Below are positions 24,258 through 61,500 of a DNA stretch of 64,000 nucleotides, piece after piece. The stretch comes from Streptomyces sp. NBC_01788 (lineage in GTDB: Bacteria > Actinomycetota > Actinomycetes > Streptomycetales > Streptomycetaceae), in assembly GCF_035917575.1 (NCBI RefSeq), contig NZ_CP109090.1, positions 3,472,001 to 3,536,000 of the forward strand. Direction: 5' to 3'. Numbering within the stretch: position 1 is the stretch's first letter; each line of letters starts with the position of its first letter. Position numbers and translations under genes: made by a program. Under the pieces are notes generated by a model. It was given only the letters and a program-made list of their open reading frames with translations, was not told where the DNA came from and ran no database searches.

Positions 24258-24330
24258 GCCTTCGTAGCTCAGGGGATAGAGCACCGCTCTCCTAAAGCGG
24301 GTGTCGCAGGTTCGAATCCTGCCGGGGGCA
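24258..24330 (+). tRNA. tRNA-Arg (anticodon CCT)
   Basis: A complete cloverleaf of 73 nt. The acceptor GCCTTCG pairs with CGGGGGC using two G-T pairs. The anticodon stem CCGCT/AGCGG encloses the loop CTCCTAA with anticodon CCT, and the T-arm contains GGTTCGAATCC. CCA is not encoded. It is the only intact copy; its 3' 44 bases recur downstream as att sites. It reads the rare AGG codon. Confidence 0.95.
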
Positions 24331-24332
24331 CA
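24289..24332 (+). repeat. att copy 1 (left end, inside the intact tRNA-Arg)
   Basis: A 44-bp core running from the anticodon loop (CTCCTAAAG) to GGGGGCACA just past the tRNA 3' end. The same core is at 33744 and 39498. About 100 bp to its right (terminator and the GGCTGCGGGCAGAGGTGGGG stretch) also resemble the right flank of att copy 2. Confidence 0.9.
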
Positions 24333-24349
24333 GCAAAACGCCTGGTCAG

Positions 24350-24380
24350 AGGCCCTTCCGTCCCACGGGCGGGAGGGCCT
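24350..24380 (+). terminator. tRNA terminator hairpin
   Basis: AGGCCCT (24350-24356) pairs with AGGGCCT (24374-24380), with further pairing inside the loop. A similar hairpin follows the att copy at 33744. Confidence 0.7.
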
Positions 24381-24443
24381 TCGTACTCGCAGCACACATA
24401 TGGCACACATGCGGCTGCGGGCAGAGGTGGGGAGCTGTGCGAG

Positions 24444-24791
24444 ATGCCCGCGAAGAACGAGCTGTCCCGGCGCCGGTACGAGAAGCTGGTCGACCGGCTG
24501 GAGTCGTTGATGCGGGCCGCTCTGAAGCCGCAGTACGAGGGGTATCTCGGGCAGCTGGTCCTGGGCAGCGACGACCTCACAAAGATGGGCGACCTCAAGG
24601 ACGTTCGGCAGGCGGCGCGGGAGGCCGGGCAGCGTCTGGGCTGGAAGACCTCCACTCGCCTCGTCGGTGGCCGGCTCTTCGTGCTCGACGAGCGGTCAGT
24701 GCCTGAGCACATCGAGGCGCTGGCCGAGGACGAGACCGCTGCCGCGATGGACCGGGCCTGGCGGGATGGCCGACGACCTAGGCTGCTCTGA
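24444..24791 (+). CDS. Small helical protein next to the integrase, unknown
   Basis: A 115-residue basic protein (KNELSRRRYEKLVDRLESLM at the start). It is rich in helix-forming residues and lies between att copy 1 and the integrase 3' end. The codon bias supports translation. The start ATG follows a weak purine stretch. No excisionase or HTH motif could be recognised with confidence. The position suggests an element-borne gene, but no function can be assigned. Confidence 0.5.
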   Translation: MPAKNELSRRRYEKLVDRLESLMRAALKPQYEGYLGQLVLGSDDLTKMGDLKDVRQAAREAGQRLGWKTSTRLVGGRLFVLDERSVPEHIEALAEDETAAAMDRAWRDGRRPRLL

Positions 24792-24925
24792 CCCGGAAAG
24801 ACCGGAAGGCCGCCTCCACCGGTTCCATACCAGTGACGGCGGCCCCCTCCGTTTGCCGTTTCCCGGCACGGATCAAACCCACATCACGCCGAGTCCTCCT
24901 CCAGGGCGGCCACCGCCTCGGCGGC

Positions 24926-26098
24926 CTAGCGGGCCTTCCGCTCGGCCTTCTCCAGCCTGGTCTTCGCCTTGGCCAACTGCTTGGCACGCCGCTTGTGCAT
25001 CTTCTTCGAGACCTCGTCGAGACGGTCCGGGAAGAGATGCCCGTACGTGTCCAGGGTCAGCGTCGCCGACTTGTGGCCCAGCATCGTCTGGACGACGTTG
25101 ACGTCCGCACCGCTGGCGATGGCGAGCGAGGCGGCCGTGTGGCGCAGCTTGTGCGGGGTGACCTTGAGGTGCCCCAGTCCGGCTTTCACGACCGCCGGCG
25201 CGAAGAGCCGCTGCCGGAAGTTACGGGCCCGCAGCGGCCCGCCCTGCGGGGCGGTGAACAGGAGCTCATCCTCGTCCCGCCCCTCGACGTGGGGCTTCAA
25301 CTCCTTCGCCAGGAATCTCGGGATCGGTACGGACCGGCGTTCGTGGTTCTTGGGAGTGTCGAGATAGAGCTTGCCGTTGTCCTCGACGTACGCCTCGACG
25401 ATGTGGGCACGGCAGGCGTCCAGGTCGACTCGGCCCACCTTCAGCGCGGACGCCTCACCCCAGCGCAGACCCGTGTAGGCCAGCAGCAGGATGAACACCC
25501 GGTAGGCGCCTGCCGCGTCGGCGAGTCCGTCCACCTGCAGGTCGTCGAGATAGACGTGATCGGTGGGGGCTGCCTTCGGGAGAGGCACTCCGAGGGCCGG
25601 ATTGACGGCCAGACGACGGGACTGGACCGCATAGCCAAGGACCCGGCTGAGGACGACGTATGCCTTCCGTACCGAGCGAGGGCTGAGCTTCCTGCCGCCC
25701 GTCGCCTCGCCGGACAGCATGTCGCCCAGCCACTCGGCGACGTCCTCGAAGTGAATGCGGTCCAGGGACGTCGTTCCCCACCGCGGCATCACATGGACAT
25801 CGAGAACCCCCCGATAGCGATTGCGCGTCGAGCGCTTGAGGTGGATCTGGGCGGCCAGCCAGGAGTCGGCGACCTCAGCGAACTTCACGCGCCCGGCGGC
25901 CGGGTCCCGATAGGAGCCGTCGGTGAGCCGGGACTCCAGCCTGGTCCGCTCGGCCTCGGCGTCGGCCTTGCGGGCCACGGTCTGCATCTTCGGCCTGCCG
26001 TCGGGGCCGTACCAGCGCACGCGGTAGCGACCGGGCGGAGTACGGCCCGCCTTCCTGGCCGCCGCCACGGCTGCGACTCGCACGGGAAGCCTGCCCAT
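24926..26098 (-). CDS. int: Tyrosine-recombinase integrase
   Basis: A 390-residue phage-type integrase. An N-terminal arm-binding region (PPGRYRVRWYGPDGRPKMQT) is followed by a SAM-like core-binding domain (about residues 75-165) and the catalytic domain. Catalytic residues are visible: the first Arg in TGLRWGEASAL, the HKLRHTAASLAI box, and the final His and Tyr in LGHKSATLTLDTYGHLF. The ATG at 26098 gives the expected N-terminus; the longer frame upstream is not conserved-looking. It is the only complete integrase in the island and points toward att copy 1, so it probably catalyses recombination between the tRNA-Arg att sites. Confidence 0.92.
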   Translation of the reverse strand: MGRLPVRVAAVAAARKAGRTPPGRYRVRWYGPDGRPKMQTVARKADAEAERTRLESRLTDGSYRDPAAGRVKFAEVADSWLAAQIHLKRSTRNRYRGVLDVHVMPRWGTTSLDRIHFEDVAEWLGDMLSGEATGGRKLSPRSVRKAYVVLSRVLGYAVQSRRLAVNPALGVPLPKAAPTDHVYLDDLQVDGLADAAGAYRVFILLLAYTGLRWGEASALKVGRVDLDACRAHIVEAYVEDNGKLYLDTPKNHERRSVPIPRFLAKELKPHVEGRDEDELLFTAPQGGPLRARNFRQRLFAPAVVKAGLGHLKVTPHKLRHTAASLAIASGADVNVVQTMLGHKSATLTLDTYGHLFPDRLDEVSKKMHKRRAKQLAKAKTRLEKAERKAR

Positions 26099-26330: not shown

Positions 26331-27074
26331 ATGCCCGACAGCCACACCGATACGAGTTCCACCCACCGGGCAGCAAGGTATGCCGTTGGACCGTCCAAGG
26401 GCCGGTCCAACGGGAATGCCTCCGCCCCGGGGGTGGCGGAGGACCTCCGGCACCGAGGGATGCCTGAGCAGGAGCAGCGTGCCGGCACAGGGACCGTCGT
26501 GCTGCCGCGCGCCGCCGAAGCCGCCGCCCTGCACCGCATCGCCCGTCGCCGCAAGCGCAAAGACACCCAGCGAAAGCAGCGCGTCGACGTGCGTTACAGC
26601 GTCGAGGAGAAGGCCGCCATCCTCGCCAGGGCACGGTCGCTGAACATCGCCGGCGCCCACTACATCGGCGCCGTCGTCATGGCCCACATCCACGGCGAAC
26701 TCGCCCTGCCCGGACAGCGCACAACGCTGGACGACTACATCGACGAGCTGACCGCTCTGCGCGAACAAGTCGCCAAGATCGGCAACAACGTCAACCAAAT
26801 CGCCCGGAAGCTCAACTCCGGCGGCCATCCACACCCTGTGGACCGTGCCGCCATGTCCCAGACCGAGCGCACCCTGACGACGGTCCGTGCTGCCGTCGGC
26901 GAGATCGCGGCAGCGGCGAACCGGGCCGTCACCAAGAAGGCGGCCTCCTCGCCCGCTATCTCTTCCTCCACCCCGCCGCCGGCGACCTCTTCCCCGACTG
27001 GAACCGCCAGATCACTGGCTGCGTCGCCCGACTGCGCGCCATCGCCGGCACCGCACCCGACGCTCCCGACCTGA
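26331..27074 (+). CDS. MobC-like relaxosome protein with altered C-terminus
   Basis: The core from about residue 80 to 200 (VDVRYSVEEKAAILARARSL, then IGNNVNQIARKLNSGGH) matches MobC/mobilisation accessory proteins. These bind the transfer origin and help a relaxase nick DNA. ATG 26331 follows GGAGG. No relaxase gene follows. Beyond about 26940 the frame enters DNA whose other frame encodes an unrelated regulator remnant, so the last 45 residues (Ser/Pro-rich) are probably not native. It is divergent from the integrase. Likely a relic of mobilisation functions. Confidence 0.7.
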   Translation: MPDSHTDTSSTHRAARYAVGPSKGRSNGNASAPGVAEDLRHRGMPEQEQRAGTGTVVLPRAAEAAALHRIARRRKRKDTQRKQRVDVRYSVEEKAAILARARSLNIAGAHYIGAVVMAHIHGELALPGQRTTLDDYIDELTALREQVAKIGNNVNQIARKLNSGGHPHPVDRAAMSQTERTLTTVRAAVGEIAAAANRAVTKKAASSPAISSSTPPPATSSPTGTARSLAASPDCAPSPAPHPTLPT

Positions 27075-27373: not shown

Positions 27374-27485
27374 GCCACCGCCGCTGTCCGGCAGGAACGC
27401 GCCGCCACGGCATGCGCCCGTGACCATCCGGCTCCCTGCCGACGGCTTGGAGCCGACCCGCTCCCCGCAGGCCGGCCCGTCCAGG

Positions 27486-27902
27486 TCAGGCAGTGCGCCT
27501 CGCAAGCGGGGCGTCCGCCGTGACCGTCTCCATGAGCCGCCCGGCCTCCTCCTCCGTGGCGGCGGGCGGCACGACGAGCAGGTCCCAACGGCCGTACCCG
27601 GGAGCGAGCAGGCAGATGGTGTGTTCGGCTCGCGGCAAGTCCGTCCGGCGCAGGTGCACCTTCTGGTCCTCGATGAGCATCCCGTCCCCGGACAGCGACC
27701 ACATCGCCCCGTTCACCAGAACGCTGCTGATGTGCCCCCAGCGGTGCGGCAGCCCGGCGAGCAGTCCGGGGAGCTCGGCGGTCAGGTCGTAGGACCTCGG
27801 CCACCAGGCCCCGTCGATACGACGGGCGGAGCCGTCATGGAAGGTCTGCTCTCCCAGCCGGAGCCGGGCGGAAGGCGGGTGAAGCGAAAGGGTGGTGGTC
27901 AT
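27486..27902 (-). CDS. DUF5994 family protein (copy 1 of 3)
   Basis: A 138-residue soluble protein carrying the family signature DGAWWPRSYDLTAELPGLLA and the end motif GRWDLLVVPP. ATG 27902 follows AGGAG. It lies 83 bases downstream of the small gene at 27986-28294 on the same strand, probably one operon. Two paralogues are at 29876 and 31788. DUF5994 proteins are common in Streptomyces, often in several copies, with no known biochemical role. Confidence 0.85.
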   Translation of the reverse strand: MTTTLSLHPPSARLRLGEQTFHDGSARRIDGAWWPRSYDLTAELPGLLAGLPHRWGHISSVLVNGAMWSLSGDGMLIEDQKVHLRRTDLPRAEHTICLLAPGYGRWDLLVVPPAATEEEAGRLMETVTADAPLARRTA

Positions 27903-27985
27903 GAGGACTCCTGGGGCGGTAGGGGTGGGGGACTCGCCACGGTCGGGGGTTCGGCGGGCGACGGCCCGCCCGGCGGCCACACGCA

Positions 27986-28294
27986 TTACGCCGTCTCGCC
28001 CGGATGTGTCCGGTCGACCGGCGGCCTGCTGGCCTCCAGCCAGGAGCGGAGCGAGCCGGCGCCCCGCTCGGGGTCGAGCGTGAGGTGCAGACGCGTCCCT
28101 CTACCTGACGGGGACGCCGGGTAACTGCGTTGCTCGCCCCCTGCGAACAGCAGCCGGAGAGCGTCCGCGACGTGCCGGGCCGCTTCGGCGTCCATGGAGA
28201 CGATGCGGACCTCGACCCTGCCCCCGGCGGGAGGGGCATCCGGAACGTCCAAGGTCAGGGATGAGTACGGTGAGTGCAGGGATTCGGTGGTCAT
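27986..28294 (-). CDS. Small protein upstream of DUF5994 copy 1
   Basis: A 102-residue protein starting MTTESLHSPYSSLTLDVPD. A segment VRIVSMDAEAARHVADALRL resembles a small alpha/beta fold. It is basic and Pro-rich at the end. The ATG at 28294 was chosen because the longer frame lacks protein character. It is divergent from the STAS-GNAT gene and followed by DUF5994 copy 1. The function is unknown. Confidence 0.5.
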   Translation of the reverse strand: MTTESLHSPYSSLTLDVPDAPPAGGRVEVRIVSMDAEAARHVADALRLLFAGGEQRSYPASPSGRGTRLHLTLDPERGAGSLRSWLEASRPPVDRTHPGETA

Positions 28295-28669
28295 CGGGCG
28301 GAACCTGTCCCGGGCCGGAAACGGCCCGTGAGGTGTCACGCGGCCCCTACCGAGCCGCGCGCCGAGGACGAGACCAGCCCTGTCACCGGTGTCCGAAGTA
28401 CCCTCGACCCTCCCCACCGTACTCCTGGCACCCTCGGCGCAGCCGCTTCCCGTCGCAGGCGACGTAGGGTTGACGTACCGAGGGCACCACGCACTCCGGC
28501 CGCCGCGCCGGGTCGTCCTCGGCGAGAGACGAACCCGGGCCGCCCCCAGCGGTCGGCGCGGAGACGGGTCGGCATCATGTCCGCCGCGGTCGAAGCAACT
28601 CCACGCAAGCGCATCATGGCTGGGGCCGCGCTGAGCAGCCGCGCTGGTCCACGCCCCAGGGGAAGCGTG
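28295..28669. other. Divergent promoter region, 375 bases
   Basis: It lies between the minus-strand pair and the STAS-GNAT gene. No gene, operator or clear sigma consensus was recognised. Confidence 0.35.
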
Positions 28670-29650
28670 ATGGCCTTTCCCCGGCTGGACATCCGTCGGC
28701 GGAACCGAGGGGAGCGGACGCAAGTCACGCTCGCCGGTGACATCGGACCGGCCACGACGCCGCTGCTGCGGGCCGCATTGGAGCAGTGTCTGCTGGACGG
28801 TGTCACCGTGATCGACATCGACCTGGCCACGGTCGGCTCCTGCGACGCCAGGGGCTTGGACATCCTCCTGTCGGCGTCACGGCGCGCCGGCCGGGTTCAC
28901 GCCTCCCTGCGGCTGCACCACCCGTGCGCGCAGATCACCCAGCTCCTCGCCGTCACCGGATCCGCTTCGCTGCTCCTTGCGGCTCCCGTGAGCCCCGTTC
29001 CGCCCGCCGCACCCGGCGACCTCATGAGTACCGCGCCGCGGGCGCCCGAGGACCCCGCTCGTCGGCCGGATCAGCCGGTCCTCAAGGACGCGATCCGCCT
29101 TCGCCGGCTGACCCGCTGGCAGGCCGAAGACATGCGCGAGGACATCGCGGACCTGGCCGCGGAGTCTGTCGCGGACACCCCCGGCGAGGCGTACCACGAC
29201 CGTGGAGACTTCCTGCGCCGCTTGGCGGTCACGGCCCACCGCCCCGGCTTCGCGCTGCTGGTCGCCGAGACGACGGTGCTGGTCGGTTGCGCCTTCGGTT
29301 TTCCGGTGGGCCCTGACGGCTCCGGCCGACGGGGGTTCGACGGAACGCTCCAGGAGACCATCCAGCGGCTCACCTCCCGCGCGCGGTTCGTCGTCCTCAC
29401 CCAGGTCGTGGCCCATCCGCACGCTCAGCACCGCGACATCGCCCGCCGCCTGCAACAGCGTCTGCTCGCAGACCTGCACTCCTCCCTCGGGGTCACCCTG
29501 CTGCATCCTGCCGACCAGGCAGGACAAGCCTCCTTCTCGTCCTGGGGCTGGCAGAACATGGGTGAGGTCGTCGGGCTGCCCGGCCCCGTCGCCCCCTGCG
29601 TGCTGAGCCTGCCTGCCGAAGGGCTTGTCCCCGGCACGCCGATGATGTGA
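28670..29650 (+). CDS. STAS domain fused to GNAT-like acetyltransferase domain
   Basis: A 326-residue fusion. Residues 1-110 form a STAS/anti-sigma-antagonist domain (RTQVTLAGDIGPATTPLLRA, then VTVIDIDLATVGSCDARGLD). In SpoIIAA-type proteins the loop reads DSxG and its Ser is phosphorylated. Here it is DARG, so it cannot be switched that way. From about residue 135 a GNAT-like domain follows (IRLRRLTRWQAEDMREDIAD, VVAHPHAQHRDIARRLQQRL). The ATG at 28670 has AGGGGAAG upstream. Nearby lie a PP2C phosphatase and three DUF5994 genes. A stress-signalling role is inferred only. Confidence 0.75.
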   Translation: MAFPRLDIRRRNRGERTQVTLAGDIGPATTPLLRAALEQCLLDGVTVIDIDLATVGSCDARGLDILLSASRRAGRVHASLRLHHPCAQITQLLAVTGSASLLLAAPVSPVPPAAPGDLMSTAPRAPEDPARRPDQPVLKDAIRLRRLTRWQAEDMREDIADLAAESVADTPGEAYHDRGDFLRRLAVTAHRPGFALLVAETTVLVGCAFGFPVGPDGSGRRGFDGTLQETIQRLTSRARFVVLTQVVAHPHAQHRDIARRLQQRLLADLHSSLGVTLLHPADQAGQASFSSWGWQNMGEVVGLPGPVAPCVLSLPAEGLVPGTPMM

Positions 29651-29875
29651 CGGAGGGACGATGAGCCGGCGTTCGTACCGGCCTCGGCGGTCACGCCACC
29701 CGTCGCCTGCCGTACGAACGTATCTCCGCGCAACGGCTGCGCACCGCGCCGCCCGCGACGGCCGGGAGTAACCTGGCAGGTACCGAGAGCTTTTCGGGCG
29801 CGCGACCACGGCGGCGCCGTTCCCGGCGAGTAACAGACACGGGCAGCCGCAAGCCGCCCGGGACGGGACCGCACG

Positions 29876-30388
29876 ATGGACGCCATCACCAAGCCCGCCG
29901 AAGATCCGGCACCAGCTGACGGACACACCTACCGGATGCCCTCGCCCCGGCTGCGCCTCACGCGGGACGCCAGCCACGGCCCGCTGGACGGAGCGTGGTG
30001 GCCGCGCTGCGACGCACTGGAGCTGGAGCTGCCCGCGCTGGTCGGCTCCTTGGATCCGAGCGTCGGCACCGTCACCCACGTCACCGTGGGGACCGCCGCC
30101 TGGCCCGATGCCCCGCAGAAGGTGATGGCGCCCGGGCATGTGATCGAGGTGGTCCTGACCGACCTCGCCACTGAGGCGCATGCCATCACCGTGGACTGCG
30201 GCACCGTGGGACGCTGGGAACTGCTGGTGATCCCACCGGACGAGCCGGCCGGAACGGCTGCCGGGTTGCTGATCGCTGCCGCCGACCCCGGGAACTCGCT
30301 GCCGGCTCCGCGCCTGCTCGCACTCGCCGAGTGCGGCCCCGACGGCCGGGACACATGGGAGTCGGAAGGAGGAGCCGGACTCAGGTGA
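29876..30388 (+). CDS. DUF5994 family protein (copy 2 of 3)
   Basis: A 170-residue protein with the signature LDGAWWPRCDALELELPALV and GRWELLVIPPDEPAG. It is longer at the C-terminus than the other copies, where about 30 residues lose family character. It follows the STAS-GNAT gene by 225 bases and precedes the phosphatase by 140 bases on the same strand. The Arg-Cys in place of Arg-Ser after WWP distinguishes it from copies 1 and 3. Confidence 0.85.
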   Translation: MDAITKPAEDPAPADGHTYRMPSPRLRLTRDASHGPLDGAWWPRCDALELELPALVGSLDPSVGTVTHVTVGTAAWPDAPQKVMAPGHVIEVVLTDLATEAHAITVDCGTVGRWELLVIPPDEPAGTAAGLLIAAADPGNSLPAPRLLALAECGPDGRDTWESEGGAGLR

Positions 30389-30527
30389 GCAGCCCGATCT
30401 GGTGGGGCTCGCGCGTGCCCGTGCCGATGCGGACGTCTACGACCCCTCGATGGAGCGATGACACCGACAGACCCTGCGTCGTCCCAGTCCGCCGCACTGA
30501 CCAGCCCGGCCCGTGGCGGGTGAGTGG

Positions 30528-31721
30528 ATGACGACCGGACGGCGCGCGGACCGCTCCGAGAGCTTCGGGGAAGCTCTGCTGGGCGAGGTCCTCGATCGCG
30601 CGCATGAACTGCCGCCCCATCTCATCGGGCCCTTGGTCGCCGACGTAGTGGGGCGGCTCGGGGGCCGCCGACCGCAGGTGCTGCTGCAGGACTACGGACA
30701 ACTGCTGCTGGTGCCCCTGCCCGGCGACGGCCTCACGGGGGGCGAACCGCTGGTGATCGACGACTCCGAGGCGGGCCGCTGCTTTCTCGACGCTCACCCC
30801 GTCGAGCTGCCCGAGGACGACGGCGTGCGGGTCCACCTCCCGCTGCTGGACGGCGGCGACCAGGTCGGGGTCATGGCAGTGACGTTGGACAGCGTCGATG
30901 ACCACGACCGCCGCATACTGCGCAGGATCGCCGGCCTGGTGGCCGACCTACTGGTGACCAAGCACGGCTACTCCGACCTTTTCTTCGGTGTCCGACGCGG
31001 TGAACCGATGAGCGTCGCCGCGGAGATCCAGTGGTCCCTGCTGCCACCGCTGGCGATGATCATGCCTCGCATCGCCGTGGCTGGGATCCTGGAACCCGCC
31101 TACGACGTTGCGGGGGACAGCTTCGACTACGCCCTCAACGGAGACATCCTCCACGTGGCCATGATCGACGCGATGGGCCACGGCCTGGACGCAGCCACGA
31201 TGGCCACCGTGGCCATCGGTGCCTACCGCCACGCCCGCCGCGCCAGCACGGGGCTACCGGAGATCTACGGCTTCATGGACCGCGCTGTGGCGGACCAGTT
31301 CGGCCCCGAGCACTTCGTCACCGCGCAGATGCTGCAGCTGGACACCACGACGGGGCATCTTCAGTGGGTCAATGCCGGGCACCCGTCACCGATGCTCGTC
31401 CGTGATCATCGAGTAGCCCTCCGGCTGACCGGTCCGACGACCCTCCCTGTCGGCTTCGGCGGTCCGGAGCCGCAGGTGTGCGAGATGAAGCTGGAGCCGG
31501 GGGACCGCCTCCTCTGCTTCACCGACGGACTGATCGAGGAACACACGATGGGTGAAGAGCAGTTCGGAGAGGGCCATCTGATCAACTGGGTGAACCAGTT
31601 GGAGAGAACCGGCCGCGGGATCCGGGCGGTGGCGCGCGCCTTGTCCCATACGCTCAAGCGGGCGCGGGGCGGACGCACCACCGACGACGCGACGCTGCTC
31701 CTGGTGGAGTGGCGCGGCTGA
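30528..31721 (+). CDS. GAF/PP2C (SpoIIE-type) serine phosphatase
   Basis: A protein of about 397 residues. The N-terminal 150 residues resemble a GAF-like sensor (PQVLLQDYGQLLLVPL, LDDHDRRILRRIAGLVADLL-type segment). The C-terminal 240 are a PP2C/SpoIIE domain with metal motifs VAGDSFDYALNGD, MIDAMGHGLDAATMA, NAGHPSPMLV and DGLIEE. Such enzymes dephosphorylate anti-sigma-antagonists. The neighbouring STAS protein lacks the phosphorylatable Ser, so its partner may be elsewhere. The ATG at 30528 (after GGGTGAG) was preferred over the GTG at 30513. Confidence 0.88.
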   Translation: MTTGRRADRSESFGEALLGEVLDRAHELPPHLIGPLVADVVGRLGGRRPQVLLQDYGQLLLVPLPGDGLTGGEPLVIDDSEAGRCFLDAHPVELPEDDGVRVHLPLLDGGDQVGVMAVTLDSVDDHDRRILRRIAGLVADLLVTKHGYSDLFFGVRRGEPMSVAAEIQWSLLPPLAMIMPRIAVAGILEPAYDVAGDSFDYALNGDILHVAMIDAMGHGLDAATMATVAIGAYRHARRASTGLPEIYGFMDRAVADQFGPEHFVTAQMLQLDTTTGHLQWVNAGHPSPMLVRDHRVALRLTGPTTLPVGFGGPEPQVCEMKLEPGDRLLCFTDGLIEEHTMGEEQFGEGHLINWVNQLERTGRGIRAVARALSHTLKRARGGRTTDDATLLLVEWRG

Positions 31722-31787
31722 CTCACCACTGTCGTCCGCACGTCCGCCGGCCTCGGCCGGGGGACGGCTCGTCAGTCCCGACCGACC

Positions 31788-32255
31788 CTACCCGCTCCCG
31801 GTGTCGATGAGGATCTGTTCCGCCTGGCTGATGTTGTCGGCCCGGACGGCCTGGGTCATCGCGGCATGTGCGGCTTCTGGTGTCGCGTGCGGCGGGACCA
31901 CCAGCAGCGAGAACACGTCCTGGTCGCCCCGGGTGATCAGGACGGTGCCATCGCCCACCGGGAAGGAGTCGATGTGCACCACCCGGTCGTCGACGACGAT
32001 CCGCGTCGGGAGGCCTTCCCAGGCCGCGGCGTCCAACCCGACACGCGTCACGGGGCCGAGATGTGCGATGAGGGCGCTCAGCAGCCCGGGCAGCTCGGCA
32101 CCGATGTCGCGCGACCGCGGCCACCACGCACCGTCCAGGACGCCTTCACGCGACTCCGTCGTCTCCAGCCGGAGCAGCGCACACCCCGGCCGCACGGCCG
32201 CGTGAACACCACTCGGCAGATGCCGGGAAACAGGGGGTGAGCCGGAGCCGGTCAT
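31788..32255 (-). CDS. DUF5994 family protein (copy 3 of 3)
   Basis: A protein of about 155 residues with VLDGAWWPRSRDIGAELPGL and VFSLLVVPPHATPEAAHAAM. It is convergent with the phosphatase gene. The start may be ATG 32255 or a GTG at 32291; neither RBS is strong. Together with copies 1 and 2 it makes three diverged members within 5 kb, so the duplication is not recent. Confidence 0.8.
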   Translation of the reverse strand: MTGSGSPPVSRHLPSGVHAAVRPGCALLRLETTESREGVLDGAWWPRSRDIGAELPGLLSALIAHLGPVTRVGLDAAAWEGLPTRIVVDDRVVHIDSFPVGDGTVLITRGDQDVFSLLVVPPHATPEAAHAAMTQAVRADNISQAEQILIDTGSG

Positions 32256-32778
32256 AAGGGACCACCCGTCTTCCAGAAACGGTGCGAACACGGGACTCGC
32301 CTCGTCCCTTCCACGCTACTCCGTGTAGCCCCGGGAGCCGGAATCACCGGGATCGGCCCGACCCCGGTGCCGGCGTCGACGGGAGGAACCGCAGTCGCGG
32401 CATTACGCTTCAGGAAAGGGGCGTATGCGGAAGCGCAGCGGCAACCGGACGCCGGACGTTCCGAGCAGTGGCCGCATATGTCCTCAGCGCCACCCCCCGC
32501 AGGAGGGGACGCGTGGATGACAAGCCACTGGCCTCCGCGGGCAACACCTGGGTCCGCCTCGTCGCGACCGGAGGCCCCTCGTGGCGTCGCCGAGGTCGTC
32601 CGCCGCTGCTCACCTCGACCGAGCAGCGCAGCTGCCCCACCGGCCGCGCGTCCCGTCTCCGTCTCACCTCCATCGACTGGCAGACACGCCTCACAGCCCG
32701 CACAGTCCTGGCTGGCATCCAGTGGATCAGCCCCCGTCAGCGCCCGCACCGTCGGCCACGAGCCCGAGAGCGACAGCC
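32256..32778. other. 523-base divergent region
   Basis: It lies between DUF5994 copy 3 and the small winged-helix gene. Frames here show no domain, RBS or family motif. Probably promoters only. Confidence 0.3.
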
Positions 32779-33397: not shown

Positions 33398-33743
33398 TGC
33401 TACCGGGTAGCACTTCGCGCCGAAGGCTTGCGCTGACAAACCTTCGGCGCGAACGCAGCGAGCGACCAGGGCGGACCGGCGGTCGTCATGGGCAGCCTGA
33501 AGCGCTCCGGTAAGCGTGCACTGCAGCTGCGCGCCCAGACCATGACACGAGTGGCAGGACTTCTCACGTCTGCGGCACAGGGCGGGTGGGTGGCCGTCTC
33601 GCGGGCAGCCCCCGCCGGAACGGATTCGGCACACATGAGGACGGGAAACCCCGCGAACAAGCGAGAACTACGGAGGGGTGTCTGACCAGGTCAGCCGTCC
33701 TGCGGTCGACGTTTGTACAGGTCACGGACCTGACGAGGGAAAA
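33398..33743. repeat. att-arm repeat, copy 1 (left of att 2)
   Basis: 346 bases, near-identical over most of the length to 39152-39497, which abuts att copy 3. The last 55 bases before the core are identical. It begins with the palindrome TGCTACC-G-GGTAGCA (33398-33412), equivalent to the second operator palindrome of the vapB gene at the other copy, although no vapBC genes remain here. It represents the internal arm of the att site shared by two related elements. Confidence 0.9.
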
Positions 33744-33787
33744 CTCCTAAAGCGGGTGTCGCAGGTTCGAATCCTGCCGGGGGCACA
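33744..33787 (+). repeat. att copy 2
   Basis: The 44-bp tRNA-Arg 3' core, identical to att copy 1, without the 5' half of the tRNA. Its right flank resembles that of copy 1 for about 100 bp, including the terminator. Confidence 0.95.
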
Positions 33788-33943
33788 GCAAAACGCCTGG
33801 TCAGAGGCCCTTCCGTCCGACGAACGGGAGGGCCTTCGTACGCGCGGTACGCATATGGCACGCGTGCGGCTGCGGGCAGAGGTGGGGCTTTCCAGCCCCG
33901 CCCACGCCATATGCCTGAGAAGGCCCGTCTACGATCAGCCGCC

Positions 33944-34837
33944 ATGGACTGGCTGGAGCGGATCGCGAAGCTGAGGCAGTGGACCAGGAGTGGGACTCGC
34001 GCTCCGCACAAGCCGCTGCTGCTCCTGTACGCCCTCGGCCGGTTCCAGGAGGATGCCGACGGCGATCTGCAATACACCGCGGTGGAGCAGGACCTGCAGC
34101 GCCTGCTGACCGAGTACGGCCCGCCCAACAAGACGACGCCCGCCTACCCCTTCCATCACCTGGTCAGCGACGGCGTATGGGAAGTGCGCACCGATCGCGG
34201 GCCTGGCAGCCCCGGAAGTGGGGTCCGGGACCTCCGGGAGACAGGCGCCACCGGACGACTCGCGCCGGACTTGAGAGCGGCGCTGCGACGTGAACCGCAA
34301 CTGCTCGGCAGAATCGCAGGATTGCTGCTCGACCTGCACTTCCCACCCTCCCTCCACAGCGAACTGTGCGAAGCCGTCGGCCTGGAACTGGAGTCGGCGG
34401 AGACCGAGCAGCTCTCGACGGCACGCAGGCAGCGGGACCCGCGGATGCGGGAGCTGGTACTGACCGCCTACGAGTACCGGTGCGCCTTCTGCGGTTACGA
34501 CGGCAGGATCGGCGCGGTGCCAGTCGGGCTGGAGGCCGCCCACGTGCGCTGGTGGGCGTTCGGCGGCCCCGATGGCATCGAGAACGGGCTGTGCCTGTGC
34601 TCGCTGCACCACAAGCTCTTCGACAAGGGTGTCCTCGGTGTGGGAGACGGCCACCGCATCCTGGTCTCACAGCGCTTCGTCGGCCACAGCGCAGCCGCCC
34701 GCAGGCACGTCATAGCCCTCGCGGGCCGTCCACTCGTCGGCCCACAGCCCGGCGCGCGCCCTGTTGCTGCCGCTCACCGCGACTGGCACACCCGTCAGGT
34801 CTTCCACGGCGAGCCGCGCCCTGCTACGACTGCCTGA
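33944..34837 (+). CDS. Phosphorothioate-dependent type IV restriction endonuclease (SBD-HNH)
   Basis: A 297-residue protein. The N-terminal half matches the sulfur-binding domain of ScoMcrA/SprMcrA-like enzymes (WTRSGTRAPHKPLLLLYALG, TTPAYPFHHLVSDGVWEVRT). The C-terminal half is an HNH nuclease with zinc cysteines (CAFCGYDGRIGAV, LEAAHVRWWAFGGPDGIENG, LCLCSLHHKLFDKG). Such enzymes cut DNA carrying backbone sulfur made by Dnd systems, so they exclude phosphorothioated DNA. ATG 33944 starts the conserved N-terminus. The SRA domain of the larger ScoMcrA is absent. It is the first gene after att copy 2. Confidence 0.9.
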   Translation: MDWLERIAKLRQWTRSGTRAPHKPLLLLYALGRFQEDADGDLQYTAVEQDLQRLLTEYGPPNKTTPAYPFHHLVSDGVWEVRTDRGPGSPGSGVRDLRETGATGRLAPDLRAALRREPQLLGRIAGLLLDLHFPPSLHSELCEAVGLELESAETEQLSTARRQRDPRMRELVLTAYEYRCAFCGYDGRIGAVPVGLEAAHVRWWAFGGPDGIENGLCLCSLHHKLFDKGVLGVGDGHRILVSQRFVGHSAAARRHVIALAGRPLVGPQPGARPVAAAHRDWHTRQVFHGEPRPATTA

Positions 34838-36924: not shown

Positions 36925-36976
36925 GCCGACCGCCTGAGCGCCGGTGTACGCCGTCACTGCTGTGGCCGCGAGACCG
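36925..36976 (-). repeat. Inverted copy of an MFS fragment
   Basis: The reverse complement of 36925-36976 matches about 36440-36491 inside the MFS remnant with two mismatches. It encodes GLAATAVTAYTGAQAVG on the minus strand. An isolated, inverted scrap of the same or a sister gene. Confidence 0.8.
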
Positions 36977-37029
36977 TGGGCGGCAGGGCTTCCGGCTTCG
37001 CAGCACATATATGTGAGGGGCTCCTCAAC

Positions 37030-37460
37030 CTACAGTTGCTGCTCCCACGGATTGACCACCAGAGCCCCGGTTCGGGCCATGTGCTTGATGTTGCGGGTGG
37101 CAACCGTCCAGCCGTTGGCCAGGGCGGTGGCAGCGATCAGTGCGTCCGGCGGGTCGATGCTGGTGCCGGCGGCCCTGAGCGTCTTGTGGACGGTGAGATA
37201 GGCGGCCGCTTCCGGTTCGCCGATCGGCGCGATGCGGTCACGGTATTCGTGCCGCACCGCAGCGAGGGCCCGAGCGTAGCGGGCCTGGCGTACAGGATCC
37301 GGAGCAGCGGCTACACCGGCCTCGATCTCGGCCATGGTGATCACGCCCTCAGGAAGCGGTTGGGCCTGGCCGTGGAGCGGAACCAGGCCAGGACACGGGG
37401 ATCGGGCTTCGCACGGGTCGTCAGCTCGGCGACGACATTGGTGTCGAACAGGTAGATCAC
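37030..37460 (-). pseudogene. VapC-like PIN toxin split by a frameshift
   Basis: GTG 37460 opens with IYLFDTNVVAELTTRAKPDP (first active-site Asp) but reaches TGA near 37340. The rest (VITMAEIEAGVAAAPDPVRQ, then SIDPPDALIAATALANGWTV) is in another frame to 37030. A one-base indel around 37338-37356 would restore a PIN domain with all acidic residues. The start overlaps the antitoxin stop (GTGA). Either a real loss of toxin activity or a sequencing error. Confidence 0.75.
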
Positions 37461-37729
37461 TCGGCGTCCGTCTGCTCGTCGTAGGAGCGGGCACCGAACT
37501 CCAGACCCTCGAAGGGCCGGGAGAGCAGGAACTCCTCGAAGCCGTCGTTGCTCAGGGCCACCCAGCGGTGCAGCATCTCTGGCAGTGCCTCGATCTCCGT
37601 GTCGGCTAGCTCTGCGTCGAAGTGCCGACGCTGGTCCTCAGGCAGGGACTCCCGGATGTCGCGAATGGTCCGCAACGGGTGCGACGACGGGGGTGGCGTG
37701 TGAGGCACACCGCTCGGGGCTGTGGTCAT
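37457..37729 (-). CDS. Antitoxin of the frameshifted VapC locus
   Basis: A 90-residue acidic protein (TTAPSGVPHTPPPSSHPLRT, then IRDIRESLPEDQRRHFDAEL) ending FGARSYDEQTDAE. Its stop overlaps the toxin start by four bases. The ATG at 37729 has GGAGGGG at proper spacing. It lacks an obvious AbrB or Phd fold, but the size, charge and coupling fit an antitoxin. It may persist because it still protects against related toxins, which is inference. Confidence 0.65.
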   Translation of the reverse strand: MTTAPSGVPHTPPPSSHPLRTIRDIRESLPEDQRRHFDAELADTEIEALPEMLHRWVALSNDGFEEFLLSRPFEGLEFGARSYDEQTDAE

Positions 37730-37936
37730 CGGCATCCCCTCCACTTGATCAGGCTGCGTACTGCTGCTGGTCCCAGGCTACGGGTTCCCACCTGCCCGCT
37801 CACAGCTTTGGGAACGGGAGCGGAGCATCCGTCCGCCTGCCCGCCGAACCACAGCGGCAGTTCTTACGGGGTTCGCCCGATCGCCCTCGTCCATGAGGCG
37901 ATGAGGCTCCGCATCAGGCACCCACCCCCGGCCCAG

Positions 37937-38065
37937 CAGCCGACCAGAACGGATTCAGCACACATGAGGCCGGGAACAGATGAGAACACATGGGAACCGC
38001 GGAGAAGTGATTTCGCAGGTCAGATGCGCTGCGGGCTACGTTTACGCAGTTCACGGCCTCGCCCA
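37937..38065. repeat. Degenerate remnant of the att arm
   Basis: The sequence from AACGGATTCAGCACACATGA onward aligns with the last third of the 346-bp att arm (equivalent to 33615-33735), with many substitutions. No core follows. It also holds one CATGGGAAC motif. It suggests an older att end that lost its core. Confidence 0.65.
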
Positions 38066-38435
38066 CCCAGGATTTCCGGAAGAGGTCAGTAGAGCCCACC
38101 GCTGGACCCGCGACATCCTGCGGGGATCGCCGTTAGCGGAGGACGCCGAGCTGAGCGCGAACGCGATCCTCCACACGGCCAGCGGTCAGGCATCCGGCAG
38201 CTTCCATCTGGCCTTGGCGGTCTCCGCGCAGGTGATCGCGCTCTCGGTCACGGACGACGGAGGCACGGGCACGGCCCCCAAGGTCGAGCACCAGAGCCAG
38301 GACGCCGAACACGGCCGCGGTCTGGGAATGGTCAGCGCCATCGCCCACAGGATCGTGGTCCACGACAGCGACGGCGGCCACACGGTCACCGCGGAACTCT
38401 GGCTCAGCCTTCGTGGGGCACTTTCGGGCGGGTGA
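37980..38435 (+). CDS. RsbW-like anti-sigma factor ATPase
   Basis: A frame of 151 residues whose last 125 form a HATPase_c_2 domain: PEEVSRAHRWTRDILRG, the N-box DAELSANAILHTASGQ, the G1 box VTDDGGTGTAP, and the G2 box HGRGLGMVSAIAHRI. It could phosphorylate a STAS partner or bind a sigma factor. The first 20 codons lie within the decayed att arm, so the original 5' end may be replaced. Overlaps the 3' end of the convergent vapC by 32 bases. Confidence 0.75.
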   Translation: MRTHGNRGEVISQVRCAAGYVYAVHGLAHPGFPEEVSRAHRWTRDILRGSPLAEDAELSANAILHTASGQASGSFHLALAVSAQVIALSVTDDGGTGTAPKVEHQSQDAEHGRGLGMVSAIAHRIVVHDSDGGHTVTAELWLSLRGALSGG

Positions 38436-39130: not shown

Positions 39131-39140
39131 ACCAACCACC

Positions 39141-46329: not shown

Positions 46330-46330
46330 G

Positions 46331-47575
46331 TCAGCTCTCGGCCGGGACCACGGCGCCGAAGGAGGCGGCGGCGATCTGCTGGATGTAGCGGATCTCGGTG
46401 CCGTTGAGGTTGGTGGGGTTGACGGAATAGACGATCGTGCGGGAGAGGTCGCGGGTGGAGAACACACCACTGGTGTAGCCAGGGCGGGAGCCGGTCTTGC
46501 CCCAGACCACGACGCCGTTGGAGGCCTTGACTCGCATCAGCCCCATGGTCATACAGGCCCGGCCGGCGTCGGCCTCGGTACGGCACTGGCTGCTGTGGAA
46601 ACTGGGGAGGTCGGGAACCGTGAAGAGCTCGGCCTGCTGGGCCGACGGAAGGAAGCGGCCACGGAAGAGCGCGGTCATGAAACGGTCGAGGTCGGCGGGG
46701 GTGGAGATCATGCCACCCTCGGCCCAGGGCCAGGGACTCTGCTCAGTGACGTCCACCGGATGCGTGGTGCCGTCCGAGGACTTGACCGTCAGGTAGCCGT
46801 CGGAGTGCGGGCTCGGCAGCCGCGGGTCGTCGGCGTCGGGGACATAGGTGTCGTGCAGGGCGAGAGGCCGGGTAATCCGGGACCGCACCTCGTCGGCGAA
46901 GGTGTGCCCGGTGATCTTCTCGACCAGTAGGCCGGCGACGTAGTAGTTCATCCCGTTGTATTGCTGCGCGGTGCCCGGCGCGAACTGCATCGGCTGGCCC
47001 GCCATCAAGTCGATCACCTGCTGCGGGGCGAAGCTCTTCCGGCGGTTGGCGGCGAACCATTCGGGGCTGCCGTCGCCGAACTCCGGGTTATGGGCGCCGC
47101 CCGGCAGGCCGCTGGTGTGGTTGAGCAGCTGGCCGATCGTGACGGGCGGCAGGTCGGCAGGCAGGACGCCCGGCAAGTACCGCTGCACGGGCTCGTCCAG
47201 ATCGATCCGGTGTTCGGCGGCGAGCTGGAGGACGATCGTGGCGGTGAAGACCTTGGAGATGCTGCCGATCCGTATGTGTCCATTGGACGGCACGCCCTGA
47301 CCGGTCTCCAGGTTGCCCACGCCCGATGTGCCCGACCAGTGGCCCGTCCTACCAGTGATCCGTAGCAGCGCGCCGGTGACGTCCACATTCGGCAGGCCGC
47401 CGATGGCCGCCTTCAGCGCGACCGGGTCCAGCCCAGGCAGCGGCGCGGTGGCGGCAGCGGGTGTTGGGCCTAACGTGGCGGCGGCGGGAACAGCCACCCC
47501 TGTGGCCAGGGTCATCAGCAGGCTGCCGCAGACAGCCAGGTTGGTCCAACGGGTGCGAATAGCAAAGCTGTTCAC
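46331..47575 (-). CDS. Secreted serine hydrolase (beta-lactamase/D-Ala-D-Ala carboxypeptidase type)
   Basis: A 414-residue protein with a signal peptide (LAVCGSLLMTLATGVAVPAA). It has a class C-like fold: SxxK nucleophile in IGSISKVFTA, YxN-type motif in QYNGMNYYVAG and KTG equivalent in VWGKTGSRPGYT. It would hydrolyse peptidoglycan peptides or related amide/ester bonds outside the cell. GTG 47575 follows GGAGAG. Its stop lies two bases from the integrase remnant. The protein appears complete. Confidence 0.88.
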   Translation of the reverse strand: MNSFAIRTRWTNLAVCGSLLMTLATGVAVPAAATLGPTPAAATAPLPGLDPVALKAAIGGLPNVDVTGALLRITGRTGHWSGTSGVGNLETGQGVPSNGHIRIGSISKVFTATIVLQLAAEHRIDLDEPVQRYLPGVLPADLPPVTIGQLLNHTSGLPGGAHNPEFGDGSPEWFAANRRKSFAPQQVIDLMAGQPMQFAPGTAQQYNGMNYYVAGLLVEKITGHTFADEVRSRITRPLALHDTYVPDADDPRLPSPHSDGYLTVKSSDGTTHPVDVTEQSPWPWAEGGMISTPADLDRFMTALFRGRFLPSAQQAELFTVPDLPSFHSSQCRTEADAGRACMTMGLMRVKASNGVVVWGKTGSRPGYTSGVFSTRDLSRTIVYSVNPTNLNGTEIRYIQQIAAASFGAVVPAES

Positions 47576-58363: not shown

Positions 58364-58377
58364 CTGCCGGGGGCACA
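58364..58377 (+). repeat. att copy 5 (partial core)
   Basis: Only the last 14 bases of the core (CTGCCGGGGGCACA) remain. The adjoining right flank (AGAGAAAAGGGCCAGCTC and the terminator hairpin) is closely similar to that of att copy 4, confirming homology. Confidence 0.8.
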
Positions 58378-58439
58378 GAGAAAAGGGCCAGCTCGGGAGG
58401 GTTTCCCTCCTGAGCTGGCCCTTCGTCATGTTCGAGGCT

Positions 58440-58567
58440 GTGCCACGCGCGTGCCGCTTGTGCCATCGAGATGCCACCTCCCCTGGCCGGAGGTGCCTCC
58501 CCCGCCCTCGTGGATCATGGCTTCGAGCCGATGGCGACGGCCTGACTCAAGTACTGGTCATGTGCTG
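58440..58567 (-). pseudogene. 3' end of a more decayed integrase (segment E)
   Basis: Collinear with 46205-46326. The minus strand starts QHMTST then hits TGA. Restoring frame gives RRHRLEAMIHEGG, matching ADRLGAMIRVGG of the segment D remnant. The similarity ends at the same base (GTGCTG) in both. Confidence 0.65.
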
Positions 58568-59429: not shown

Positions 59430-60000
59430 GTGGGGGGCTCCTACTCACTCGGTGACGCCGAGCGCCCGGTGCGCGGTCGACCATGCGTGAACACCGGTTC
59501 CGAACTGCGGCGACGTCCTGTGGGTCGACATTCTTAGAACGGCTCCACAGGGAGCGCAAAGGGCCCCGCCACTACGTCGCCTCGTAGGTCCCGGGACCTC
59601 GCCAGGGCAGTGCACGGGCCTCCGGTTCCGCACATGGCGGCGGGAGGGGAAGCTGTCGCGTCGTCAGAAGCCTTACGGCACGGGGCAGCGGGCGCGCGGA
59701 CCGACCGAGTGGAATTCCGGGACGCACGACGGGATCCGAATACGGACTAAGACGGACAAAAGCACAGATACCCGTCATGCCACGACTACTAAGTGCGCCG
59801 GTTGATTGGTGGAGCGCTGTGACCGACGTCATAGAACATGGGCTTCCGTGGCTTTCGCGCCCCGTGGACCCCGGGGCCTGCAGGGAGTCACCCTCGGCGC
59901 TGGGCGGCATCCCTCACCGCTGAGCCGCCGCCACTCAGCAAGTGCACATACGGGCCTTCTCCCTGCTGCCTTCCGGACGTGGTGGCACGGATCGCCTGGT
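59430..60000. other. 571 bases without a recognised gene
   Basis: Upstream of snapalysin. Frames here lack protein features. It presumably includes the snapalysin promoter. No LysR-type regulator gene, often found beside snapalysin, is present. Confidence 0.4.
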
Positions 60001-60441
60001 TCAGCGAGGCGCGTACGCCACACGCTCGAAGGGCCACTCACGGGACAGCCAGTCGCTGACCACGCGGTAGAGCTCAGCGTCGAGGGAAGCGTTATCCGCC
60101 CGGACCCAGGAGCGGACGTCAGTGACACCGGGGTCTTGGGGTGAGCCGTATATGTAGACACAGCCGATGACGTCATCCCCAGGGACCGACAGGACGGTGT
60201 AGGTGAAGCCGACGCGCCGGTCGAAGTCCTCCGCGTGCAGGCGCAGGTCGTCGAGGTTGGCCTCCAGGGACATGCCCCCCGGAGGCGGCCAGGAGCGGCC
60301 GGCGAAGTCGGGGTTGGCTCGAATGTGGGCGATGCTGGAGGTCCAGGCGGCGTGATCGGCAGCATTGTGCTGAGGACCGAGGGGCTCCAGGCGGAAGCGG
60401 TCGGTGGCAGGCGGGTGCGGTACGGCGAAATCGGGAGCCAC
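60001..60441 (-). CDS. GNAT-family N-acetyltransferase
   Basis: A 146-residue protein resembling the RimJ/RimL-like group. The N-terminal strand (FRLEPLGPQHNAADHAAWTS) is followed by GFTYTVLSVPGDDVIGCVYI, a typical beta strand before the acetyl-CoA site. It ends with WLSREWPFERVAYAPR. The acetyl-CoA loop Q/RxxGxG is not evident, so activity is uncertain. GTG start at 60441 with a weak RBS. Confidence 0.65.
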   Translation of the reverse strand: MAPDFAVPHPPATDRFRLEPLGPQHNAADHAAWTSSIAHIRANPDFAGRSWPPPGGMSLEANLDDLRLHAEDFDRRVGFTYTVLSVPGDDVIGCVYIYGSPQDPGVTDVRSWVRADNASLDAELYRVVSDWLSREWPFERVAYAPR

Positions 60442-60595
60442 GAGGAACTGGTCAGGTGAAGTCTCCGCGGGAGGTTACCCCCGGGCCCCTGCCGATCTCT
60501 CGCGAATATTGGGAGACAGCACCGATAGCCGTCGTGATGAACCCCGACACCAGCAACTCCGGACAGGCGTGAACCCACGAATGCTGATCCGGTCG

Positions 60596-61366
60596 TCACG
60601 AAAACGGGCGACGGCACCAGAACCGGCCCGCGATCCAACTCCTGAGGCGGTGGCCGACGGAGCCTCTTCCTTCCTCGCGGGCTGACGGGGCCGTTCGCAC
60701 TGGCTCCGGCGCCACCGGCCGGTCTGCGGGGGAGCCGGCAGGCTTCGGTTCGTACGGGCAGAGCGGCGCGTGAAGGCCTTTCTGCGGTTGCAAGGCGCCG
60801 CGGATCAGAGTGCAGCGGTGGTGGCGGTCGGGGCGGACGCGGGAGGTACGCCACCCCGTATGCCCCGTGGAGGCGAGGGCATGGTCAACGCCGCCTGCCA
60901 GGGCTTCTGCGGTATCCGCGAAGATCCAGCCCGTTGCATACACGCTGTCCTGGCCGAGCCACTGCATGCGAATGACCGGTCTGCTCAGGACAGTCTCGAA
61001 CCAGGTGGCGCACTGCTCGGCGAGCTGTTCTGCCGTCCCGCTCGCGTGGAAGAACCCGTTCTCGGGTGTCTCGTGGAGGTTGAAGAGCTGGTCGCAGACC
61101 TTGCCGGCACGCATATGGGTGCCGTGGAAGTGCACCGCCCATTCGCCGAGTATCAGGCGCCGCTCGCTGTCGCTGAGAGAGATGTGGACCAGCAGCGATG
61201 AGTCGTCCTCGGGGCGGCCGACGCTGCTGTATGCCGGCGGCACGCGCCATGAAGCGGCTCGGGCCTGCAGGGTCGCGATGAAAGCCAGCTCGCCCGCATC
61301 GAAGTCCCAAGGCTCCTCGCCGTCCTCCTGAGGGTCTTCAACTACGAACCAGGGGTTGCTGTCCAC
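60596..61366 (-). CDS. Hypothetical protein, possibly altered C-terminus
   Basis: A 256-residue soluble protein (VDSNPWFVVEDPQEDGEEPW at the start). Residues 1-175 look native, with an acidic N-terminus and a mixed alpha/beta pattern (WAVHFHGTHMRAGKVCDQLF). After about residue 180 it becomes Arg/Pro-rich without fold character, suggesting a frameshift or a joined tail. GTG start. It is the last gene before att copy 6. The function is unknown. Confidence 0.5.
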   Translation of the reverse strand: MDSNPWFVVEDPQEDGEEPWDFDAGELAFIATLQARAASWRVPPAYSSVGRPEDDSSLLVHISLSDSERRLILGEWAVHFHGTHMRAGKVCDQLFNLHETPENGFFHASGTAEQLAEQCATWFETVLSRPVIRMQWLGQDSVYATGWIFADTAEALAGGVDHALASTGHTGWRTSRVRPDRHHRCTLIRGALQPQKGLHAPLCPYEPKPAGSPADRPVAPEPVRTAPSAREEGRGSVGHRLRSWIAGRFWCRRPFS

Positions 61367-61462
61367 GGGCCGAGTCTAGAACTCCGCCACCGCCCTTTCG
61401 CCGAGGGATACATGTCCGCGGACATCACCGCAGGAAACAGCGGGCCCCGATGTTCGGCCAGG

Positions 61463-61500
61463 AAAGCGGGTGTCGCAGGTTCGCATCCTGTCGGGGGCAG
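61463..61500 (+). repeat. att copy 6 (diverged core, right end of the island)
   Basis: AAAGCGGGTGTCGCAGGTTC is exact. The rest has GCATCC for GAATCC, TGTCGG for TGCCGG and an altered end. It is followed by a hairpin (GGGCCG...CGGCCC) related to those after copies 4 and 5. It marks the return to core-like sequence. Confidence 0.85.

What the first reader, a model, noticed from the sequence alone, without database searches (positions are those of the whole stretch)
24289..61500. Six tRNA-Arg(CCT) att copies in tandem: a five-segment accretion island with one complete integrase
The tRNA 3' end recurs at 24289, 33744, 39498, 46089, 58364 (partial) and 61463 (diverged), always in the same orientation and always at a change of gene content. 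Copies 1-3 are identical over 44 bp, copy 4 has one inserted A, and copies 5 and 6 are progressively decayed. Only the first segment keeps a full integrase, so the rest could move only in trans. Six-fold stacking is more than the two or three sites usually reported for CIME-type accretion. The gradient of decay suggests younger insertions nearest the tRNA.
Basis: partly seen in the sequence, partly recalled or inferred. Interest (0 to 1): 0.85.

Follow-up and report, generated by a model that had tools for sequence, protein, structure and literature searches.

The report
Stacked mobile cassettes behind one tRNA
Behind one arginine tRNA gene of a Streptomyces chromosome, pieces of mobile DNA, some of them small toxin-antitoxin gene pairs, have piled up in a row at copies of one joining site, and related species carry some of the same pieces in other orders and numbers.

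Summary
tRNA-Arg(CCT) at 24258-24331 is followed by five same-strand copies of its 3' part, two of them identical to it over 44 bp. This is tandem accretion, a known kind, but the reading needs correction.

The island does not end at copy 6: the chromosomal flank conserved in relatives starts 17-19 kb beyond the window (island about 56-59 kb). The segments are not single elements: parts of segments 1 and 2 are separate core-bounded units in relatives, namely a cargo block (Z) and two 1.1-1.2 kb PIN toxin-antitoxin units (X, Y), in the opposite order in one relative and more alike than the average flank.

Segment 1 looks like a decayed mobilizable element: integrase and MobC, no relaxase found. 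Segments 1 and 2 share both att arms, so that integrase may serve segment 2. Copies 4-6 have another right-arm type; segment 4 starts with a C-terminal integrase relic.

In 78 other genomes the counts are 44x1, 23x2, 10x3 and 1x6 copies; own 5 by the same rule. Three near relatives, not chosen at random, have 8 matches on one contig each. New variant of a known kind: cassette-like toxin-antitoxin units in a tRNA att array. Mobility was not tested.

The parts
24258..24331 (+). tRNA-Arg(CCT), attB host gene; copy 1 of the core is its 3' part from 24289
24332..24432 (+). right (P') arm of type A with hairpin, 91% like the arm after copy 2
24444..24791 (+). 115-aa ORF between tRNA and integrase, no Pfam or NCBIfam match
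24926..25987 (-). tyrosine integrase (type A), the only integrase match found in the island
   Evidence: 39 of 52 relatives lie within 1.5 kb of a tRNA-Arg or core match
26331..27074 (+). MobC-like mobilisation protein; the relaxase that follows in relative G049 was not found here
27468..32335 (.). module Z (STAS, SpoIIE and DUF5994 genes): in core-bounded segments without integrase match in G380 (94.4%) and G144 (83.6%)
33398..33743 (+). left (P) arm of segment 1, 95% like the arm at 39152-39497
33744..33787 (+). core copy 2
33788..33887 (+). right arm type A of segment 2
33944..34837 (+). HNH protein, matching the phosphorothioated-DNA-binding restriction endonuclease model; cargo of segment 2
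   Evidence: Pfam HNH_2; NCBIfam NF045808 345.7 bits, cutoff 180
36976..38064 (.). module X: PIN-type toxin-antitoxin unit, PIN frame interrupted here; self-standing core-bounded 1.13-kb segment in G279 (97.1%); diverged left-arm match at 37934-38056, no core beside it
38399..39497 (.). module Y: Phd-type antitoxin 38861-39130 and PIN toxin 38404-38871 (both -), then the P arm 39152-39497; self-standing 1.21-kb segment in G142 and G279
39498..39541 (+). core copy 3, followed by right arm type B
40581..45362 (.). cargo of segment 3: ThrE-like exporter, SDR fragment, part of a Na+/H+ exchanger, zinc alcohol dehydrogenase
46087..46133 (+). core copy 4 with one inserted A
46134..46335 (+). right arm type C, including a C-terminal integrase relic at 46234-46329 (-)
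58364..58458 (+). copy 5: last 13 bp of the tRNA plus right arm type C
61463..61582 (+). copy 6 (37 bp, 95%) plus right arm type C; starts a sixth segment that runs past the window to about 80.6-83.4 kb (window numbering)

Best explanation
A tRNA-Arg(CCT) attachment hotspot in which several tyrosine-integrase elements and integrase-less derivatives have stacked by site-specific recombination. Each arrival recombines at the core that runs from the anticodon loop to the 3' end, brings its own tRNA 3' end plus a right arm that usually begins with a strong hairpin, and pushes older units outwards. Decay removes integrases and relaxases and fuses neighbours where a core is lost. Some units are small core-bounded cassettes, among them 1.1-1.2 kb toxin-antitoxin units (X, Y). 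Shown: repeated cores and arms, arm types, an integrase relic, fused units, the same units in other orders and copy numbers in relatives. Inferred: horizontal sharing of X and Y, action of the type A integrase on type-A-armed cassettes in trans or in cis, and the hairpin ending tRNA transcription.
For: Cores and arms. Short and filled sites: tRNA-to-flank distance 5-147 kb in 107 of 111 genomes, four outliers. Modules self-standing elsewhere: Z (G380, G144), Y (G142, G279), X (G279, G130, G202). Order Y-X in G279 against X-Y here. Y is 93.6% and 95.3% identical to G142 and G279, X 97.1% to G279; flank matches over 500 bp left of the tRNA are 73-87% (G142) and 85-88% (G279). Of 9 other genomes with X at 84% or more over 500 bp or more, 8 have a core within the fetched flank of about 1.5 kb (the ninth, G149, lies about 1.9 kb behind its tRNA); 0 of 8 with X at about 70-73% do. 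Y: 7 of 11 at 84% or more over 700 bp or more. 0 of 45 background 4-kb windows hold a core match. 70 nt after the core fold at a median of -36.9 against -25.6 kcal/mol for random 70-mers; 78% against 27% reach -30. 39 of 52 type A integrase loci have a tRNA-Arg or core match within 1.5 kb.
Against: No excision circle, restored junction or transfer was looked for in cells. Block R itself is 94-97% identical in G142, G279 and G380, so conserved stretches can be as alike as X and Y; horizontal sharing rests on the average flank. 4 of 11 genomes with close Y and 1 of 9 with close X have no core in the fetched flank. 13 of 52 integrase loci have no match within 1.5 kb: 6 have a tRNA or CCT core further away, 4 only 69-71% matches, 3 none, on contigs that end within 0.7 kb. 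No clear integrase arm sites: 2 near-repeats between the arms, against 0-9 in 20 shuffles. The decay gradient is not significant. In G380 the stretch from 61607 to the flank is largely collinear with the window's genome (83-94%), so the sixth segment is old and shared there; no further core match was found in it.
Confidence: 0.8

Rival explanations
1. The array grew by a few ordinary integrations, and the later shuffling of units is homologous (RecA) recombination between repeated arms and cores after chromosomal transfer, not integrase action on cassettes.
For: Arms of copies 2 and 3 are 95-98% identical over 200-390 bp, long enough in principle for homologous exchange; one integrase match remains in the island.
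Against: X has a core at its edge in G279, G202, G182 and G130, where the arm beside it is only 72-79% like the window's type A left arm, which leaves mainly the 43-bp core as common homology.
Confidence: 0.3
2. Cassettes move only as passengers of larger composite elements (cis-mobilisation of an integrase element with its neighbours); small units are leftovers after internal deletion and are never mobile alone.
For: This is the published model for CIMEs (PMC5704250 and PMC7563491, passages) and is proposed for Streptomyces AICE/DAICE tandems (PMC9513070, passages).
Against: X or Y is the first unit behind the tRNA in G202, G375 (X) and G356 (Y, with an X fragment after it), and Y has different neighbours in G142 and G279.
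Confidence: 0.4
3. The extra copies are chance or conserved tRNA-like sequence unrelated to mobile elements.
For: Copies 5 and 6 are short and diverged.
Against: 0.00 expected by chance for the core at up to 3 mismatches; short sites in relatives; shared arms.
Confidence: 0.01

Closest known systems
CIME / tandem accretion (Streptococcus salivarius survey PMC7563491; review PMC5704250)
   Same: Elements without integrase or conjugation genes, bounded by att sites, in tandem with an integrase-bearing element; the survey reports CIMEs of 1.2-13 kb and the most decayed ones farthest from the target gene (section 19).
   Different: The survey reports 33 two-element and 4 three-element islands in 75 genomes. 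Here 6 copies, and 8 matches on one contig of a relative; some small units are toxin-antitoxin pairs shared between genomes.
Accretion of AICEs/DAICEs at a Streptomyces tRNA-Arg (PMC9513070; S. avermitilis Sav3708/Sav3728 in PMC3218068)
   Same: Same genus, a tRNA-Arg site, direct repeats, different integrases at one site, an old remnant.
   Different: One to three elements plus a remnant there (section 13). In this window no TraB-type family was found among the 30 ORFs scanned, and most units have no integrase. Whether it is the same tRNA-Arg gene was not tested.
SGI1 tandem arrays (PMC2297512)
   Same: Up to six copies in tandem at one att site.
   Different: Those are copies of one element in transconjugants (passages); here the contents differ.
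Integron cassette arrays (general knowledge recalled, not tested by function)
   Same: Several small cassettes in a row at one recombination site, including toxin-antitoxin cassettes.
   Different: The integrase is far below the integron model's cutoff (TIGR02249 43.7 bits, cutoff 265); the shared joining site is a tRNA core with long arms.

Membership tests
CIME (cis-mobilizable element), segments 2-5 | Bounded by direct att repeats of the target gene | tested here: met
   weak for segment 5, whose left copy is 13 bp
CIME (cis-mobilizable element), segments 2-5 | No integrase or transfer genes of its own | tested here: met
   no other PF00589 match in the island at E 0.01; no relaxase, TraB or FtsK family among the ORFs scanned; not every small ORF was scanned
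CIME (cis-mobilizable element), segments 2-5 | Derived by decay of an ICE or IME | tested here: inconclusive
   integrase relic at 46234-46329 for segment 4; no such relic seen for X and Y
CIME (cis-mobilizable element), segments 2-5 | Mobilised with a neighbouring element | not testable with these tools
   needs an excision or mating assay
IME (segment 1) | Own integrase | tested here: met
IME (segment 1) | Relaxase, or oriT with mobilisation genes | tested here: not met
   MobC present; no relaxase-domain match here, one in the related element of G049; oriT not tested
AICE | FtsK/SpoIIIE-type TraB, replication protein, integrase | tested here: not met
   no TraB or replication family among 30 ORFs scanned; integrase present
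Integron | IntI-type integrase | tested here: not met
Integron | attC folded single-strand cassette sites | not tested
   folding of cassette ends as attC was not examined

The most novel reading that the evidence does not exclude
tRNA-Arg(CCT) in Streptomyces is a platform for an integron-like cassette system. Minimal units (core, right arm with hairpin, one toxin-antitoxin or other small operon, left arm) circulate between species as separately mobile cassettes, inserted and excised by tyrosine integrases of co-resident elements, with toxin-antitoxin units helping to keep the array.
Probability: 0.3. Interest if true: 0.75.

Novelty: new variant of a known kind. Interest (0 to 1): 0.55.

Why it matters
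Two island resources whose rules I saw would miss such units: Islander counts tandem members only if each has its own integrase (4 tandems of 3 or more in a set of 3919 islands; passages of PMC4383910), and TIGER/Islander excludes islands under 2 kb (passages of PMC12424338). If these cassettes move, toxin-antitoxin genes and other small operons have a route between Streptomyces chromosomes that such counts do not see, and arrays in related species give a ready system to test trans-mobilisation of CIMEs.

Tried and rejected
Copy 6 as the right end of the island: rejected. The DUF4153 gene next to it is far from tRNA-Arg in single-contig relatives such as G093 and G005, and the conserved block R, present in 150 of 150 genomes, lies at about 88 kb in window numbering.

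Copies 4-6 sharing a right flank because it is the native chromosomal flank: not excluded. The type C cluster (single linkage) also holds the flank directly behind the tRNA in G109 and G052, where another integrase follows, but also in single-copy short sites (G029, G123, G043, G041, G086, G053). The seven shortest sites have other flanks.

A relaxase remnant at 26735-27004: rejected; the match covers residues 1-103 of the G049 frame, upstream of its relaxase domain (132-233) and overlapping mobC.

Integrase arm-binding repeats in the type A arms: not above shuffles. Plasmid search with the first 15 kb: no record covers 80% of it; the 15 listed of 98 records match the SpoIIE-gene region or an IS5-type transposase. 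41 viral-contig stretches with the exact core were not followed up.

Rows dropped before counts: I chose by hand the rows for the tRNA/R table. It has 111 genomes (own included) of 150 with tRNA and R on one contig; of the 39 left out, one (G127) shares a contig and was missed by oversight; it was fetched afterwards and has one copy, giving 78 genomes in the census. Of 110 others in the table, 26 with R inverted and 7 outside 5-70 kb were left out. One dropped genome (G124) shows 3 copies in its first 17 kb. G380, G142 and G279 were chosen because they match the window best, not at random. Not counted in the X test: short X matches in G356, G131 and G142; the first two, and one of two places in G142, have a core near.
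Full report
Observation. tRNA-Arg(CCT) lies at 24258-24331. Its 3' part, from the anticodon loop to the end, recurs on the same strand at 33744 and 39498 (both exact), 46087-46132 (one inserted A), 58364 (last 13 bp only) and 61463 (37 bp, 95%). At up to 3 mismatches none is expected by chance. Six other places in the genome match: two are tRNA-Arg genes by ARAGORN (CCG, TCT), the rest are weaker or partial.

Arms. The repeats reach beyond the core. Copies 1 and 2 share about 100 bp on the right (type A), copies 2 and 3 share about 346 bp on the left, copies 4, 5 and 6 share 95-120 bp on the right (type C), and copy 3 has a third right arm (type B). So segments 1 and 2 have similar arms at both ends. 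The 70 nt after 153 core copies fold at a median of -36.9 kcal/mol, random 70-mers from the same regions at -25.6; 78% against 27% reach -30 (the script's 'non-tRNA' subset leaves out two contig-first copies that are not at a tRNA). A terminator role is inferred.

Gene content. Segment 1 has the only integrase match of the island and MobC. The related type A element of G049 (probably S. cyaneochromogenes MK-45, inferred from equal contig lengths) also has a relaxase, not found here. Of 52 loci with relatives of this integrase, 39 have a tRNA-Arg or core match within 1.5 kb of its end. Segment 2 carries a protein matching the phosphorothioated-DNA restriction endonuclease model and two PIN units; the genome has 8 PIN matches, two of them here (p about 1e-5 for 5.75 kb, 0.001 for 56 kb, chosen after the fact). 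Segment 4 begins with a relic that aligns over 34 positions, 73.5% identical, near the C-terminal end of the G109 integrase frame, so it probably once stood beside its own integrase.

Extent. A conserved block R was found in 150 of 150 genomes of the genus. Matches of 250 bp or more to the flank of relatives start at about 80.6 kb in 10 of 77 and most often (34 of 77) at about 83.4 kb in window numbering, 17-19 kb past the window end. No further core match was found in that stretch. In G380 the stretch from 61607 to the flank is largely collinear, 83-94% identical, so the sixth segment is older than the split from G380.

Census. The tRNA-to-R distance is 5-147 kb in 107 of 111 genomes, own 63.7 kb; four are outliers. 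In 78 other genomes with R in the same orientation and 5-70 kb away, copy numbers are 44x1, 23x2, 10x3, 1x6; own is 5 by the same rule, which misses the 13-bp copy (77 genomes, G127). Contiguity across contigs is not shown.

Units and shuffling. Module Z (27468-32335) lies in a core-bounded segment without integrase match in G380 (94.4%) and in G144 (83.6%). Module Y (38399-39497) makes up 91% of a core-bounded 1.21-kb segment in G142 and in G279, 93.6% and 95.3% identical. Module X (36976-38064) makes up 96% of a 1.13-kb segment in G279, 97.1% identical. Flank matches over 500 bp left of the tRNA are 73-87% identical for G142 and 85-88% for G279, so X and Y look horizontally shared, though the conserved block R is itself 94-97%. 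The order is Y then X in G279, X then Y here; here X has no core beside it and a diverged left-arm match at 37934-38056. Segment 2 is therefore most simply a fusion of at least three units.

Wider test. In 392 genomes, 9 others hold X at 84% identity or more over at least 500 bp; 8 of them have a core within about 1.5 kb, and the ninth (G149) lies about 1.9 kb behind its tRNA. None of 8 genomes with X at about 70-73% has a core there. For Y (84% or more over at least 700 bp), 7 of 11 others do, with the core 113-133 bp before Y. Background: 0 of 45 windows of 4 kb. Of 18 fetched loci with Y at 82% identity or less, 6 have a whole 82% match to the tRNA within the locus and one a fragment; ARAGORN calls anticodon TCT in the two checked. 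Other small core-bounded units encode an antitoxin-toxin-like pair (G100, G128; my reading of the sequences, no Pfam match for the G100 pair), an HTH gene beside a short ORF (G279), a PIN_3 protein (G279) and Uma2 (G082, with a similar protein in G007); three more short units (G010, G128 s5, G148) were read by eye only and look like none of these.

Mechanism. Successive site-specific integration, decay and fusion explain the anatomy. That the type A integrase moves integrase-less units in trans is plausible for segment 2 by its arms but not shown, and doubtful for segments 4-6. Homologous recombination between arms is the main rival for the shuffling; movement only in cis is the main rival for single-cassette mobility.

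Known work. Accretion of one to three elements at a Streptomyces tRNA-Arg is published (PMC9513070, passages and section 13), as are tandem AICEs in a tRNA-Arg of S. avermitilis (PMC3218068, passages), CIMEs from 1.2 kb upwards in S. salivarius (PMC7563491, passages and section 19) and six-fold SGI1 arrays (PMC2297512, passages). Nine searches of the open-licence library gave, among the rows listed (3 to 20 each), no title that names toxin-antitoxin cassettes in tRNA att arrays of Streptomyces; beyond the passages and sections named I saw listings only, and most subscription papers are not held.

Noticed in passing
G000 chromosome 5324637-5309457 (-) and 3931887-3928402 (-): Two further places that match the tRNA (one is tRNA-Arg CCG by ARAGORN) have a partial repeat downstream (about 15 kb and 3.5 kb) and an integrase match close by; they look like other islands.
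   Followed up: no
block R, L062:4577-5373, in relatives: In 26 of 110 other genomes of the tRNA/R table, R is inverted relative to the tRNA, so the right flank has turned over in some lineages.
   Followed up: no
L293, L295, L296, L298-L300: Distant relatives of toxin-antitoxin module Y lie near a match to another tRNA; ARAGORN gives tRNA-Arg with anticodon TCT in L296 and L298.
   Followed up: partly
window 53036-54769: A TnpB-type protein and an IS200-like transposase, divergent, in segment 4.
   Followed up: no
window 35207-35891: IS5-type transposase stretch; similar copies lie near the ends of G279 contigs C51 and C20, where the assembly may break inside the array.
   Followed up: partly
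L237-L277: 41 stretches of viral contigs carry the exact 43-bp core, so phages or prophage flanks may use the same site.
   Followed up: no
window 36437-36488 and 36925-36976: A 52-bp inverted repeat (96%) about 0.4 kb apart ends where the match of module X to G279 begins.
   Followed up: no
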